This document shows positions 57,688 through 64,000 of a stretch of DNA of 64,000 nucleotides, one piece after another. The notes under the pieces are model-generated. The model saw only the letters and a list, made by a program, of their open reading frames with translations. It was not told the origin of the DNA and did no database searches. Both the position numbers and the translations under genes were made by a program. The first letter of the stretch is position 1; every line of letters starts with the position of its first letter. This stretch comes from Metarhizium brunneum (lineage: Eukaryota > Ascomycota > Sordariomycetes > Hypocreales > Clavicipitaceae), in contig NC_089422.1 of NCBI RefSeq assembly GCF_013426205.1, positions 7,157,001 through 7,221,000 on the forward strand, given 5' to 3'.

Positions 57688-59873
57688 ATGTATGAACGCC
57701 AGAGAGTCTGGCGGGCCTGCCAGCCATGCCGTAGAAAGAAGATCAAATGTGACGGAGAGCAGCCTTGCAGAAGCTGTAATAAGAGCCAGGCAGATTGTGC
57801 CTACGCTGAGCCGTCCAGTAACATGCGGATGGCCGATCCTCAGTAAGACCGAGTCCATTGTGGGAAGTTTGACGCAGATGGAGTACAGTGCTAACCTGAG
57901 TTCATAGGTATGTCATGAAACTCGAAAGCCGACTGATGTCAATGGAGAAAAAGCTGCAGGAACATAACTCGGCTGGTCGTTGCGCAAATGGAGAATCAAC
58001 TACAGCTGAAGCTGAGACTGGAGGACCAGCATTCTGCAACAGTCTCCAGGGAGGCCCTGTCGGTGACATGCAGCAAGCATCGGCCACTGGTAATACAACA
58101 CCTGGGACCGATAAAGAAGACTCTGTCAACAAGACTCCAGACCAGCACAAGAGTCTAGGTTCATCAACAGGTGAATATACACTGCCAAGTGGCTTCAATG
58201 AACTTGATCAGATGCTGTATAACTGTGACGAAACCCTTGTGCTAGAGGAGCCACCTAGTCCCCAGAGCAATTTCGAAGACGTTTCAAGCTTGCCACGGAC
58301 CTTGATCGACGTCTTGGTTGGCCAGTTTTATCACAAAACCTACTCAATATTTCCCATCATTAGAGAACCTGAATTTCGACACCAGTTAGATCAGTGGGCT
58401 GCCACGGGGCAAGACGGAAGCGGCTTCATGCCTGTTCTATATGCTCTTCTGGCCGTCTCTGCTTCCATTTTGCCCGACGACCACGCCGTCTTCGAATTGC
58501 CCGAGGTGAGAGGATATAAATCGCTCGACCTTGGGGATTTGATCTCATCGCATGCGAATTCACAACTGTCTCTCAAGTCATGCAAAGCTGACAAACTCGC
58601 TCGCATCAACTCAGTCATTGCACATGGGCTTTTAAGTCTGTACTTGGCGGAGGCTGGCCAGGTGACTGAAGCATGGGTCACGACAGGTCATGCTATACGA
58701 CTGTACCAAGGATTAGATTTGTATGATGGTGCTTCGTCGAGCAATGAGTCTGTCGATTCACCAGGCGGGCACAGCGCCATATGGTGGTGCCTGTACATAC
58801 TCGACCGATCTCTTTCGACGGTCCTGCTCAAGCCGCTCGCTATCGATGATGTGGAGTGCGACGTGAGTTCTACCGATGACGGAGAAAGCCACATATCAGT
58901 CTCGGAGGATGAGGTTGACCCATGGTTCTCCGTCATAACAGGATTTCACATCACTATGGGCAAGATTTACAAGTCTGTACGCTCATTTCGAAAGCTCCAA
59001 CACACTGACAAGAGCGACTCCAACGAAATATTGGTTTCTCGTCTCAAGAACCACGACATGGAGCTGGAACAGTATTATGAGAAGCAGGTTCTTCCAAACA
59101 TGAGGAATAACCCAGATGATCCGCAGCGAATGGGCCTGCAGACTATTGCCGTGTCTTCGTATTTCATCGGCGTGGTACTTCTCTATCGTCAATTCATTGA
59201 AATGTTCCGTATTGAAGACCCCCAAATCTACCTTCGCTGTGCGGAGGCTGCATCCAATTGCATTCGGCTTACACCAAAGGTCTTAGATACCGTTCCCGCA
59301 AGCCATTTTATGATTCAGCAAAGCCGGTCAATATATGTGGGCTCCAAGGTCTTGTTGCACTGCATGCGTCTAGTACGGAATGAAAGTTTTAGTAATAAGG
59401 CTTGGGATGATGTTCACATGGGATTAGAAATGTTGCGAAAGATCAAAATCCAGTGGCCGGAGATCAAAAAGTATCAGAAGCTCACGGAAGACGATATGCG
59501 ACTTACCAAATCCGAGTTGGATAGACATGAGACCTTTGGCAAGACATTTGACGGATTCACACCTCTATCTGGGGATGAGATCTACTATCGGCTCTCCAGC
59601 TCAAACCGGTCCTTGAGCAACGGGGGTCTTGGCTCAGCTACCGGACATTGCCGTGACACAGACGATACTCGCGATATCCATCGTAAATCTAAGCGGCAGA
59701 AACCATCAGCTCCTTGTAATTCACTCAGCCCTGATTTGTCAGGCTTATTTCAAGCTGGTGGAAGCGAGATGGGAGATGACGATTTTACAATGTCATTCAT
59801 GCTAGACCTAGCAGCATTTACACCAACAACTGCATTGGCATCTACCAACTTATACGAAGATGGGGTCAGCTGA
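57688..59873 (+). CDS. Zn(II)2Cys6 transcription factor with fungal-specific regulatory domain
   Basis: CDS join(57688..57842,57908..59873), 706 residues. Exon 1 encodes MYERQRVWRACQPCRRKKIK, then CDGEQPCRSCNKSQADC: the six Cys of a binuclear zinc cluster, residues 11-37. A 65-bp intron (GTAAGA...CATAG, CTAAC branch) leads to the dimerisation coil YVMKLESRLMSMEKKLQEH. A middle homology domain begins near LIDVLVGQFYHKTYSIFPII, with GHAIRLYQGLDLYD and WWCLYILDRSLSTVLLKPLA typical of the fungal_trans family. The C-terminus is Ser/acid-rich with DDDFTMSFMLDLAAF, a likely activation region. It ends 93 bp from the 3' end of the dioxygenase gene, so it is the natural candidate regulator of the adjacent aromatic-degradation genes; this is inference from position. 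Confidence 0.92.
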
Positions 59874-59966
59874 GGTAGAAATCGGGAACAATCCAGATGA
59901 AAAAAAAAGGGCGGCGGTAAAGAATTTTATTCAGGCGGAAATAACTTCCTCCAACTCCCACATATG

Positions 59967-60688
59967 TCAATATGGCGGTGCCGTCTGGCCACATTCTCTA
60001 CACTTGCGAGTCTCCTCGTTGGTCATCCAGTCATCAATCACAAGCTTCAGCTGTGTCTCAATATCTTCACAGTAAAATTGTTCATGCCGAATAATGACTG
60101 GCTCCTCGCTGTGTGCTTTTTTATTAGGGCAATACCATTGCAATTGGTCGATGCTCTCCTTTGGCCGAGTTCTTTCCATGACGAGGCCAACGGTATCTTT
60201 GTATCGAATCGGCGAGTGAGGAGTGTTGCCTTTTTATTTATAGCTCTGGGTTAATGGCCTCGAACCATTTGCGATCTTTTGTTGACAGACTTACCGGGGA
60301 GGAGGAACATTTCACCCTCGCGGATATGAACATCGCGGAACTGACTGCCGTTCTCGACGATTTTTAATAGCATATCGCCTTTGAGCTGGTAAAACCATTC
60401 CTGTCCATGGAATTAGTAATATTCTGTCAGGATTGGCAAGGTTTTGGTACTTCTGTCTGATTGACTGTTCAAGGCTCTGTTAGCGATGCTTCTCGACATC
60501 AAGGCCATTGACATACCATGATAGTCACTTCTTGTGTTTGGGCCTCCAACTGCCATTAAAATGAAGTCCTTACCCGAGTACAGGCATTGATTATTCACCG
60601 GGGGCTTTAAGTTTGCAGCATTGGTAGACAGCCAGGATGACAGGACAAGTGGCCCTGCAAGAAGTGCTTCACCGGCTGTGGGAGCCAT
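59967..60688 (-). CDS. BNA1: 3-hydroxyanthranilate 3,4-dioxygenase
   Basis: CDS complement(join(59967..60229,60295..60400,60451..60464,60517..60688)), 184 residues, the usual length. It opens the ring of 3-hydroxyanthranilate with O2 to give 2-amino-3-carboxymuconate semialdehyde. The sequence has NNQCLYSGKDFILMAVGGPN, then RSDYHVNQTEEWFYQLKGDM, with the His and Glu iron ligands, then VHIREGEMFLLPGNTPHSPI with the second His. A 14-nt micro-exon (VNQTE part) and three introns of 50-65 bp are required to restore this. The C-terminus keeps CRECG, but only one Cys (WYCPN) is left of the first pair that forms a rubredoxin-like iron site in bacterial-type enzymes. In de novo NAD synthesis this enzyme feeds quinolinate; the neighbouring decarboxylase suggests a catabolic role here. 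The symbol is given by enzyme class; this may be a paralogue of the NAD-pathway gene. Confidence 0.93.
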
Positions 60689-62368: not shown

Positions 62369-62665
62369 CATGTAGACCTATTCTGATTTCAAGGTAGTAA
62401 GTTTGATCGTGTGGCATGTTTTTTTTCATTTGGTAATCTATGCATGTAGAATGCCAGTTTGACCCTTTGAATCCTGTAATACAACACCACTCTTACTCAA
62501 TCCCTGCTGCCATGGTCGCTTCGGATGCATCCGAGTCTGTGTGAGCACCACATGCTACGCCGCTTGGCGTCACGGACGGCATAAAACAGCATCAAGCCGC
62601 CTCTACACTGTGATGCGAAACAAGATACATGACACATGACACATGACACATGACCTTATTCCGAA
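62369..62665. promoter_or_regulatory. Promoter region of the aldehyde dehydrogenase gene, with four ACATGAC repeats
   Basis: 297 bp between the decarboxylase stop and the dehydrogenase ATG. Four perfect tandem copies of ACATGAC occupy 62627-62654, ending 11 bp before the ATG at 62666. They would lie in the 5' leader or core promoter. No TATA box is obvious. Confidence 0.5.
62627..62654 (+). repeat. (ACATGAC)4 tandem repeat
   Basis: Four perfect 7-bp units immediately before the dehydrogenase start codon. Not seen elsewhere in tandem in the window. Confidence 0.85.
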
Positions 62666-64000
62666 ATGGACACGATCGCAACGCTTTGGAACGCCGACAC
62701 CCCAGATGCGGCCGAGGCTCTTCTCCAGACCACCGCCGCCAAACCTCTCCGTCTACAAAATTTTGTGGCCAACGAATTCTATAAAGCCTCCTCATCCGTC
62801 GACGCGCTAGAGTCCTTCAACCCTAGGACCGGCAAGGTACTGGTTCATGTGCCATCTAGCTCCGCAGCAGACGTAGACCAGGCCGTCGATGCGGCAGCCA
62901 CTGCGTTCCCTTCCTGGTCCCGGACCCCAAGGCAAGAAAGGGCCCGCTTGCTACAGAAAGTCGCCCATCTAATCCAAGAGAACAAGAATCTGCTTGCTGT
63001 ATGGGAGAGCATAGACCAGGGCAAGACGCTGGCTCGGGCAGAAGCCGAGGTTGACAGAGCCGCAACGAACTTCAGGTATGGCCTCGTCGCACCTAATTCC
63101 CCCTCTACGCCGTCATGAAAAACTTTGGACTAACACCGCCCAACACTGCTACAAACAGCTATTTTGCCCAGTTTATTCTCGCTGAGGAAGGGACCGTCCG
63201 CTACGTAGACGGCGAGTCACCCGTCATGGCGTATGAGCACCGGTCACCAGCGGGCGTGTTCGGCCTCATCACGCCGTGGAACATGCCGCTGTACCTGCTG
63301 ACGTGGAAGATTGCGCCCTGCCTGGCATTCGGGTGCGTTGCCGTCGCAAAACCCAGTGAAGTGACGAGCGTCACTGCCTTCTGTAAGTCCACCACGGACC
63401 CGGGGCAGAAGCACGTGTTTGCCACATATCTGACTCTGGCCAAGTACTTTGCGAGATATTCCGCCAAGCCAAGCTCCCCCCCGGCGTGATCAACATGGTG
63501 TTTGGCAAAGGGGCCACGGCGGGCTCGGCACTCGTCACGTCTCCCAAAGTCCGCGGGGTTTCATTCACAGGCGGCGTGGGCACGGGGATCCGCATCCGGC
63601 AGGATACGGCTGCCGACGTGGGCAAGCACATCTCCCTGGAGCTGGGGGGGAAGAATCCCAACTTGATCTTTGAGGATGTCGAGATGGGCAAGGCGGTCCG
63701 TCTCGCGGCCAGGGCTGCTTTCGAAAACAGCGGCCAGATATGCCTCTGCGGATCGAGGATTTACATTCACCGCTCTCGATATGAGGAGTTTCTACCGGCC
63801 TTTGTGGGCTATGTGAAGCAGAATTATATATGCGGAGGGACACTAGGGCCCGTGGTTTCGAGGGAGCACTACTCCAAGATACGGTCTTACCTGGCTTTGG
63901 CGCAAAAGGAGTCGGCTACATTCCACCTGGGTTCTGTTCCTGAAGAGGACCCCCAAGGCGGATACTGGATACCCCCCGTGGTATTGACGGGGCTTTCCCA
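62666..64000 (+). CDS. Aldehyde dehydrogenase, 2-aminomuconate-semialdehyde type (3' end cut by window)
   Basis: Partial CDS join(62666..63075,63159..63382,63445..>64000); the two introns are 83 and 62 bp. The spliced protein (about 396 residues to the edge) is a canonical NAD-dependent ALDH: SFNPRTGKVLVHVPSSSAAD, FGLITPWNMPLYLLTWKIAP with the oxyanion Asn, VAVAKPSEVTS with the cofactor Lys, GVINMVFGKGATAG, VSFTGGVGTG, the base Glu in ISLELGGKNPN and the nucleophile Cys in ENSGQICLCGSR. The pattern is that of the 2-hydroxymuconic/2-aminomuconic semialdehyde dehydrogenase branch. Lying in tandem after the decarboxylase, it probably oxidises 2-aminomuconate semialdehyde to 2-aminomuconate with NAD+. 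ALDH family is certain; the exact substrate is inferred largely from the neighbours. Confidence 0.88.

What the first reader, a model, noticed from the sequence alone, without database searches (positions are those of the whole stretch)
57688..64000. Candidate 3-hydroxyanthranilate catabolic gene cluster with its own regulator
A Zn2Cys6 regulator, 3-hydroxyanthranilate dioxygenase, ACMSD and a semialdehyde dehydrogenase lie side by side. The three enzymes perform consecutive steps from 3-hydroxyanthranilate to 2-aminomuconate. In fungi the dioxygenase normally serves NAD synthesis, and ACMSD diverts carbon away from that route. Physical clustering suggests an inducible pathway that degrades tryptophan/kynurenine-derived or host/plant-derived aminophenolic compounds. 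The cluster runs off the right edge, so a 2-aminomuconate deaminase, kynureninase or transporter may follow.
Basis: partly seen in the sequence, partly recalled or inferred. Interest (0 to 1): 0.78.

Follow-up and report, generated by a model that had tools for sequence, protein, structure and literature searches.

The report
Fungal 3-hydroxyanthranilate breakdown gene cluster
A Metarhizium-type fungus carries a compact set of genes, with a likely switch gene of its own, for breaking down a tryptophan-derived aromatic compound; the core set is already described in fungi, but its regulator, a shared promoter sequence and a possible missing enzyme look unreported.

Summary
Four intact genes lie at 57688-64322: a Zn2Cys6 regulator, 3-hydroxyanthranilate dioxygenase (HAO), ACMSD and 2-aminomuconate-semialdehyde dehydrogenase (AMSDH). 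Past the window edge follow a RidA-type 2-aminomuconate deaminase (AMDA, 64623-65099) and a quinone-reductase-like MDR enzyme (65144-66139). The genome (a Metarhizium, by inference) has a second HAO on contig 6 that is closer to the yeast enzyme, the expected NAD copy. So this is a dedicated catabolic cluster. The core is in print: Martins et al. 2021 (PMC7842363) described HAO-ACMSD-AMSDH-(AMDA) in Ascomycota, Metarhizium included. Not found in the papers searched: (1) the regulator, 1-2 locus tags from ACMSD in six Penicillium species; (2) the palindrome CGGATRYATCCG, 8 sites in 37.8 Mb, 3 of them in this cluster's enzyme promoters; (3) the MDR enzyme, on one contig with an ACMSD or regulator homologue in 15 of 120 listed relatives. 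I propose, unproven, that it reduces 2-oxo-3-hexenedioate to 2-oxoadipate, a step left open in that paper. Induction and substrates were not testable.

The parts
57688..59873 (+). Zn2Cys6 transcription factor, 2 exons (57688-57842, 57908-59873), 706 aa; candidate dedicated regulator
   Evidence: PF00172 2.3e-10, PF04082 4.5e-11; several Penicillium orthologues share the MYERQRVWRAC start; 1-2 locus tags from ACMSD in 6 Penicillium species
59967..60688 (-). 3-hydroxyanthranilate 3,4-dioxygenase (catabolic paralogue), exons 60688-60517, 60464-60451, 60400-60295, 60229-59967, 184 aa
   Evidence: 51% identical to the contig 6 copy
60905..60916 (.). CGGATACATCCG palindrome in the divergent HAO/ACMSD promoter; candidate regulator site
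   Evidence: 216 bases from HAO ATG, 120 from ACMSD ATG
61037..62368 (+). [quoted passage not shown]
   Evidence: human ACMSD 2wm1 259.6 bits; members of the superfamily other than ACMSD at most 94.7 bits
62522..62533 (.). CGGATGCATCCG palindrome in the AMSDH promoter
   Evidence: 132 bases from ATG
62666..64000 (+). 2-aminomuconate-6-semialdehyde dehydrogenase (AMSDH), exons 62666-63075, 63159-63382, 63445-64322, 503 aa; the last 322 bases lie beyond the window. Further cluster parts beyond the window, in window coordinates: CGGATGCATCCG palindrome 64464-64475; AMDA (RidA-type 2-aminomuconate deaminase) 64623-65099 (+), or from 64539; MDR quinone-oxidoreductase-like reductase 66139-65144 (-)
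   Evidence: AMSDH; both substrate-binding arginines (Arg120, Arg464 of PMC4286809) are aligned to Arg. Palindrome. AMDA. MDR:

Best explanation
This is a dedicated 3-hydroxyanthranilate catabolic cluster. HAO opens the ring to 2-amino-3-carboxymuconate semialdehyde. ACMSD decarboxylates it before it can cyclise to quinolinate. AMSDH oxidises 2-aminomuconate semialdehyde to 2-aminomuconate. AMDA deaminates that to 2-oxo-3-hexenedioate (tautomer of 2-hydroxymuconate). NAD synthesis is left to the other HAO on contig 6. The confidence given here is for this core. Two further steps are rated apart: the Zn2Cys6 protein most likely binds the CGGATRYATCCG palindromes 120-216 bases upstream of the four enzyme genes and switches them on together (about 0.7), and the neighbouring MDR protein most likely reduces the C=C bond of 2-oxo-3-hexenedioate to give 2-oxoadipate (about 0.4). 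Shown by sequence: gene content, open frames, enzyme families, second HAO, palindromes, linkage in some other fungi. Inferred: the reactions in this fungus, regulator-site binding, induction and the MDR reaction.
For: Enzyme identity: best solved relatives are human ACMSD, Pseudomonas AMSDH, 2-aminomuconate deaminase and yeast HAO. The AMSDH arginines 120 and 464 that bind the substrate (PMC4286809, passages) align to Arg. Second HAO: 222 bits to the yeast enzyme against 159 for the window copy. Prior work: the same core is upregulated in A. terreus on salicylate and reported in Metarhizium (PMC7842363). Regulator: TF and ACMSD homologues share a contig length in 9 cases; in the six with both locus tags visible the tags differ by 1-2. 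Palindrome: 3 of 8 genome sites of CGGATRYATCCG and 2 of 5 of CGGATGCATCCG lie in this cluster's promoters; chance about 6e-10 for 3 of 8 in 8.5 kb; a comparison of five promoters for shared 10-mers returned parts of it as five of six shared words, all shared by the AMSDH and AMDA promoters. MDR: 15 of 120 listed homologues share a contig length with a listed ACMSD or TF homologue, 8 on contigs under 700 kb, one of only 9.9 kb; in three pairs with visible tags these differ by 2-4. The MDR and ACMSD trees both reject a Hypocreales clade (AU p 8e-60 and 8e-13), as expected if the MDR moves with the cluster. No match to bacterial 4-oxalocrotonate decarboxylase in the genome.
Against: No expression, binding or enzyme data for this fungus. 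The MDR promoter has no good palindrome (best 4 mismatches), nor has the regulator's own. The motif was first noticed by eye, so its chance figure is partly post hoc; with up to 3 mismatches the 14-mer is not enriched in the window (2 found, 3.36 expected). ACMSD and MDR homologues are on different contigs in Xylogone, Discula, Cryphonectria and Cytospora mali, and TF and MDR homologues in A. puulaauensis, so linkage is not universal. Discordant MDR trees could also come from hidden paralogy. MDR family names (quinone reductase) do not fix the substrate. Martins et al. do not mention such an enzyme in the cluster. Contig identity was judged by equal contig length, not by reading the contigs. 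AMSDH scores barely higher to AMSDH than to a generic aldehyde dehydrogenase (341.4 against 340.6 bits).
Confidence: 0.88

Rival explanations
1. The core cluster is catabolic as stated, but the MDR gene is only a neighbour: a general quinone or enone reductase that protects against reactive semialdehydes or quinones, or plain conserved synteny.
For: Its family is annotated quinone oxidoreductase. It has no good palindrome. It is unlinked to ACMSD in some fungi. The genome holds 37 further MDR-like matching stretches.
Against: On one contig with ACMSD or TF homologues in Penicillium, Xylariales, Capronia, Pleurostoma and others; the contig 2 paralogue is closer to yeast Zta1; its tree departs from the species tree as the ACMSD tree does.
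Confidence: 0.45
2. The cluster's main role is not carbon gain but steering: pulling 3-hydroxyanthranilate away from quinolinate/NAD or toward picolinate, or detoxifying 3-hydroxyanthranilate.
For: ACMSD is the branch enzyme against quinolinate (established pathway knowledge). Upstream kynureninase is not in the cluster and only one match was found.
Against: AMSDH and AMDA are present and carry the flux past picolinate to 2-oxo-3-hexenedioate; a separate HAO closer to the yeast enzyme exists.
Confidence: 0.2
3. The enzymes act on a different ring compound (for example a substituted aminophenol acid or a secondary metabolite intermediate) rather than on 3-hydroxyanthranilate itself.
For: The window HAO is divergent (51% to the contig 6 copy, one C-terminal Cys lost) and misses one of two NCBIfam equivalog cut-offs.
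Against: All four consecutive enzymes match the 3-hydroxyanthranilate route, and HAO passes the TIGR03037 equivalog cut-off. I recognised no biosynthetic core gene next to the cluster (flank ORFs only partly annotated).
Confidence: 0.08

Closest known systems
3-hydroxyanthranilate catabolic gene cluster of Ascomycota (Martins et al. 2021, PMC7842363; main text parts 1-4 of 7 read, plus a term search of the whole main text)
   Same: 3HAO, ACMSD, AMSDH and the YjgF-family AMDA clustered; Metarhizium is named as a holder; A. terreus also has a second 3HAO gene (ATEG_00088, orthologue of the single-copy gene of A. nidulans)
   Different: The main text does not use the words transcription factor, zinc or quinone (0 each) and names no regulator, promoter motif or MDR reductase of the cluster in the parts read; [quoted passage not shown] Figures (legends apart) and supplements were not seen.
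Bacterial 2-nitrobenzoate / 3-hydroxyanthranilate clusters (nba of Pseudomonas, recalled; onb of Cupriavidus, PMC5817917, search listing only)
   Same: Consecutive HAO, ACMSD, AMSDH and deaminase genes (recalled)
   Different: The nba lower pathway runs by 4-oxalocrotonate decarboxylase, hydratase and aldolase (recalled); no match to that decarboxylase here
Mammalian kynurenine-glutarate branch (HAAO, ACMSD, ALDH8A1; recalled)
   Same: Same reactions to 2-aminomuconate; 2-oxoadipate as proposed product
   Different: Genes not clustered (recalled); a RidA-type deaminase and a linked MDR are features of the fungal cluster
Yeast Zta1 / zeta-crystallin quinone reductases
   Same: Same MDR family; 39% identity to yeast Zta1
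   Different: Clade-specific residues; the contig 2 paralogue of the same genome is closer to Zta1

Membership tests
Fungal 3-hydroxyanthranilate catabolic cluster (Martins 2021) | 3HAO, ACMSD and AMSDH genes adjacent | tested here: met
Fungal 3-hydroxyanthranilate catabolic cluster (Martins 2021) | YjgF-family AMDA gene in the cluster (recurrent, not universal) | tested here: met
   64623-65099
Fungal 3-hydroxyanthranilate catabolic cluster (Martins 2021) | Separate HAO gene elsewhere in the genome for NAD synthesis | tested here: met
   G000:C6:3219515-3219892; 222 bits to yeast HAO against 159 for the window copy; its NAD role itself is inferred
Fungal 3-hydroxyanthranilate catabolic cluster (Martins 2021) | Co-induction of the genes by aromatic substrate | not testable with these tools
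   No expression data for this fungus
3-hydroxyanthranilate 3,4-dioxygenase | Passing curated equivalog cut-offs | tested here: inconclusive
   TIGR03037 passed (184.5 of 145.95), NF009763 not reached (198 of 220), Pfam 3-HAO passed
ACMSD | HxH metal pair, Arg, metal His, catalytic His and metal Asp of human ACMSD conserved | tested here: met
   H62/H64, R117, H243, H296 and D368 align in the phmmer alignment (residue roles recalled)
AMSDH | Two substrate-binding arginines (Arg120 and Arg464 of the Pseudomonas enzyme) and catalytic Cys/Glu | tested here: met
   Arg roles from PMC4286809 passages; alignment; Arg120 is shared by the generic 4o6r, so Arg464 is the telling one
AMSDH | Passing the NCBIfam equivalog cut-off for related muconic semialdehyde dehydrogenases | tested here: not met
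   TIGR03216 432.9 of 693 bits, HpaE 442.9 of 638; no model for AMSDH itself was among the 25 hits shown
2-aminomuconate deaminase | RidA fold with closest relation to a characterised 2-aminomuconate deaminase | tested here: met
   6izh E 2.5e-18, next entry 6.6e-11, shared SGTSSRR..TF.GA stretch
Zn2Cys6 fungal regulators | N-terminal Zn_clus plus Fungal_trans domain | tested here: met
Zn2Cys6 fungal regulators | CGG-type dyad in target promoters | tested here: inconclusive
   CGG-N6-CCG palindromes in all three enzyme promoter regions, binding not shown
Canonical NADPH:quinone reductase (Zta1/QOR) orthologue | Closest genome relative of yeast Zta1 | tested here: not met
   Over about the same stretch the contig 2 paralogue scores 211 bits (44%) and the cluster MDR 181 bits (39%)

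The most novel reading that the evidence does not exclude
The cluster-linked MDR is the unassigned reductase that turns 2-oxo-3-hexenedioate (or 2-aminomuconate) into 2-oxoadipate, so that fungi feed tryptophan-ring carbon into the 2-oxoadipate/glutaryl-CoA route (and, as fungi make lysine through 2-oxoadipate, possibly into lysine). It belongs with a set of genes controlled by a dedicated Zn2Cys6 factor at CGGATRYATCCG. Bacteria with the same four-enzyme core carry an unrelated SDR nearby (12 of 15 loci with HAO+AMSDH+AMDA against 6 of 65 other ACMSD loci; queries taken from two of the 15), which would be a second solution to the same step.
Probability: 0.4. Interest if true: 0.68.

Novelty: new member of a known kind. 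Interest (0 to 1): 0.45.

Why it matters
It confirms from raw sequence a recently described fungal central pathway of aromatic breakdown. It adds three testable pieces not found in the papers searched: a candidate dedicated regulator, its candidate binding site, and a candidate gene for the step after 2-aminomuconate that Martins et al. leave open. If the MDR reading holds, an unassigned step of tryptophan catabolism gains a gene.

Tried and rejected
Rejected: that the window HAO is the only genome copy. Rejected: that ACMSD is another amidohydrolase-type decarboxylase (human ACMSD 259.6 bits; superfamily members other than ACMSD at most 94.7). Rejected: a kynureninase in the cluster (one genome match, 1.4 Mb away). 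Not settled: a transporter nearby; ORFs to 85.2 kb were listed, three right-flank ones run against Pfam, and an MFS search scored only 9 of 421 candidates. Rejected: that the palindrome marks the IDO/kynureninase pair (no site in L025). Of the five genome sites outside the cluster: L022 lies between ORFs near ferric-reductase genes, L024 inside an R3H-domain ORF, L023 in a stretch without long ORFs, L026 and L027 beside open frames that I did not identify. None was recognised as a pathway gene. Rfam scan of 55000-64000 at gathering thresholds: nothing. Pfam on three ORFs in the gene-sparse stretch 55.3-57.2 kb and on the 50.4-51.6 kb gene: nothing.

Not possible: reading other fungi's contigs (the genome collections are prokaryotic, metagenome scans capped at 0), so no phylogenetic footprinting of the palindrome, and linkage was judged from equal contig lengths and locus tags. 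KMO, glutaryl-CoA dehydrogenase and tautomerase genes were not searched. No structure was predicted.

Against my reading: MDR linkage shows in 15 of 120 listed rows only (many rows are short contigs or other assemblies; the lists are the best 120 of 5449 and of 7998 hits, and candidates were capped); in the MDR tree the 'linked' label is not significantly clustered (84 of 500 shuffles as low); that tree was rooted on the contig 2 paralogue, an unspliced open frame with a long branch, so the separation of the two is not a test; the SDR queries came from two loci of the favoured set, and 7 of the 15 loci are close myxobacterial relatives (with one of them kept: 6 of 9 against 6 of 65, p 3e-4); 4-hydroxy-2-oxovalerate aldolase gave five matches below cut-off. 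An MDR match in the bacterial loci appeared in 1 of 80, weakly, so the MDR link looks fungal.

Trees used part of what was held: ACMSD the window plus 37 of 120 hits, after a first tree of the window plus the listed hits over 300 aa; MDR the window, the contig 2 paralogue and 42 of 120 hits, then the window and 36 of 120; TF the window and 27 of 89.

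
Full report
What was checked. The window is G000:C1:7157001-7221000 of a 37.8 Mb, 7-contig fungal genome. The regulator is 96% identical to a Metarhizium humberi protein and the MDR 98% to a Metarhizium anisopliae protein, so the source is a Metarhizium close to the anisopliae group (inference). Reading the DNA and fetching the sequence to the right gave open gene models by GT-AG introns for six genes: regulator, HAO, ACMSD, AMSDH, AMDA, MDR. The HAO needs a 14-nt exon to give the DYHVNQTEEWFYQ stretch that matches the paralogue's DYHINQTPEWFYQ. 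Coordinates above 64000 are window coordinates continued into the genome.

Enzyme identity. HAO: Pfam 3-HAO 179 bits; best solved relative the yeast enzyme 1zvf; one of two NCBIfam equivalog cut-offs passed. ACMSD: human ACMSD 259.6 bits, bacterial ACMSD up to 183.7, superfamily members other than ACMSD at most 94.7. AMSDH: Pseudomonas AMSDH 4i1w first, although a generic aldehyde dehydrogenase scores almost as high (4o6r, 340.6 against 341.4 bits), so score alone does not decide. The two arginines that bind the substrate in the Pseudomonas enzyme (PMC4286809, passages seen) both align to Arg; 4o6r shares the first and has Val at the second (with an Arg one residue earlier). AMDA: an entry named 2-aminomuconate deaminase is first (E 2.5e-18, next 6.6e-11). 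It is one of several RidA-family genes in the genome (11 matching stretches).

Catabolic or NAD? The genome has two HAO loci by PF06052. The contig 6 copy scores 222 bits to the yeast enzyme and keeps the C-terminal CxxC pair; the window copy scores 159 bits and has lost one Cys. The contig 6 copy is therefore the expected NAD-pathway enzyme and the window copy the catabolic one (inference). One kynureninase match was found, divergent from an IDO gene at C1:8.61 Mb, so 3-hydroxyanthranilate supply is not encoded in the cluster.

Prior work. Martins et al. 2021 (PMC7842363; [quoted passage not shown] FAMeDB (PMC13094099, passages) lists 3-hydroxyanthranilate as a central ring-opening intermediate in fungi. 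Two passages of PMC8929692 bear only on the decarboxylase family. The core finding is thus known. Searches that could have shown a regulator or an MDR in this context listed no such paper; they cover an open-access library, I saw listings (20 of 43) and opened only the papers named here, and figures (legends apart) and supplements were not seen.

Regulator. The first 74 of 89 rows (38-96% identity over at least 60% of the query) carry, where named, only Metarhizium, Penicillium, Aspergillus and Xylogone names; E then jumps from 6e-112 to 5e-40. Candidates were capped in that search. Nine TF rows share a contig length with an ACMSD row, and in six pairs with visible locus tags these differ by 1-2: P. 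macrosclerotiorum, P. cataractarum, P. brasilianum, P. waksmanii, P. herquei, P. verhagenii. In the ACMSD tree the window groups with Pochonia and the orbiliomycete Arthrobotrys, and next with Penicillium, two Aspergillus and Xylogone (SH-aLRT 100), apart from Fusarium; a single Hypocreales clade is rejected (AU p 7.7e-13). The two Metarhizium database proteins that I read start after the zinc-cluster exon (P0001, P0002), which may explain why the gene has not been recognised as a Zn2Cys6 factor.

Candidate operator. CGGATGCATCCG stands in the AMSDH and AMDA promoters and CGGATACATCCG in the shared HAO/ACMSD promoter, 120-147 bases from three of the start codons and 216 from HAO's (for AMDA this counts from the downstream ATG). 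CGGATRYATCCG occurs 8 times in the genome (control pattern 3), 3 of them here; the exact form 5 times (control 2), 2 of them here. A binomial estimate gives 6e-10 for 3 of 8 falling in 8.5 kb. I first saw the motif by eye; a comparison of five promoters for shared 10-mers then returned overlapping parts of it as five of six shared words, all between AMSDH and AMDA. With up to 3 mismatches the 14-mer TCGGATGCATCCGA is not enriched in the whole window (2 found, 3.36 expected); in the 10 kb around the cluster it gives 3 against 0.53 expected, reached by 6 of 200 shuffles. The regulator's and the MDR's own promoters lack a good copy. The five other genome sites were not recognised as pathway genes.

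MDR. It stands convergent to AMDA, 44 bases apart. Its nearest relative in the genome (48%) is closer to yeast Zta1 than it is. Of the 120 best homologues listed, 15 share a contig length with a listed ACMSD or TF homologue, 8 of them on contigs under 700 kb and down to 9.9 kb; where both members are named (8 of 15) the species agree. In three pairs with visible tags these differ by 2-4: Neoarthrinium, P. mononematosum and P. desertorum. Linked examples occur both in the Penicillium/Metarhizium type and in the other type (Xylariales, Capronia, Pleurostoma). In Xylogone, Discula, Cryphonectria and Cytospora mali the two are on different contigs. The MDR tree rejects Hypocreales, or Metarhizium plus Fusarium, as a clade (AU p 8e-60 and 6e-78), as the ACMSD tree does for Hypocreales, so the MDR may move with the cluster; hidden paralogy is the alternative. 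Clade-specific residues include Q153, T159 and R236, and N273 and R278 (window numbering), absent from the reference quinone reductases that cover them (four for the first three, three for the last two). Solved relatives include a 2-haloacrylate reductase (1wly), whose name implies reduction of a C=C bond next to a carboxylate. The genome shows no match to 4-oxalocrotonate decarboxylase and only sub-cut-off matches to the aldolase of the bacterial lower route. A C=C reductase for 2-oxo-3-hexenedioate is the specific role I favour; it is not shown.

Bacterial comparison. An SDR of one kind (E under 1e-20) is present in 12 of 15 loci with HAO, AMSDH and AMDA and in 6 of the other 65. The SDR queries came from two of the 15, many of the loci are short contigs, and seven of the 15 are close myxobacterial relatives, so this is a lead only.

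Verdict. The cluster itself is a known kind, already noted for Metarhizium. The regulator with its palindrome and the linked MDR are additions worth testing.

Noticed in passing
G000:C1:8608315-8612189 (L025): The one kynureninase match in the genome and an IDO gene are divergent neighbours about 1.1 kb apart, a second kynurenine-pathway pair without the palindrome.
   Followed up: partly
window 57688-57842; P0001, P0002: Database models of this regulator in M. humberi and M. rileyi start after the first exon and so lack the Zn2Cys6 domain that the DNA of this genome encodes.
   Followed up: partly
window 59967-60688 and G000:C6:3219515-3219892: The cluster HAO has lost one cysteine of the C-terminal CxxC pair (WYCPNK) that the contig 6 copy keeps (WYCASC).
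   Followed up: no
P0091 (Arthrobotrys) against window 61037-62368: ACMSD of the orbiliomycete Arthrobotrys is 75% identical to the Metarhizium protein and joins Metarhizium and Pochonia in the tree, which suggests horizontal transfer of the gene.
   Followed up: partly
L044:13683-14420, L103:16878-17654 and related bacterial loci: A FabG-like SDR gene recurs near bacterial HAO, ACMSD, AMSDH and AMDA genes (12 of 15 loci) and could be a bacterial counterpart of the missing reductase; L103 also holds a kynureninase and a tryptophan-2,3-dioxygenase-like gene (the latter below its NCBIfam cut-off).
   Followed up: partly
window 51645-57687: About 6 kb without a recognised gene to the left of the regulator; three ORFs tested give no Pfam match.
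   Followed up: partly
beyond the window, 68252-69046 in window coordinates (+): A polysaccharide lyase gene (PF14099) lies to the right of the cluster.
   Followed up: no
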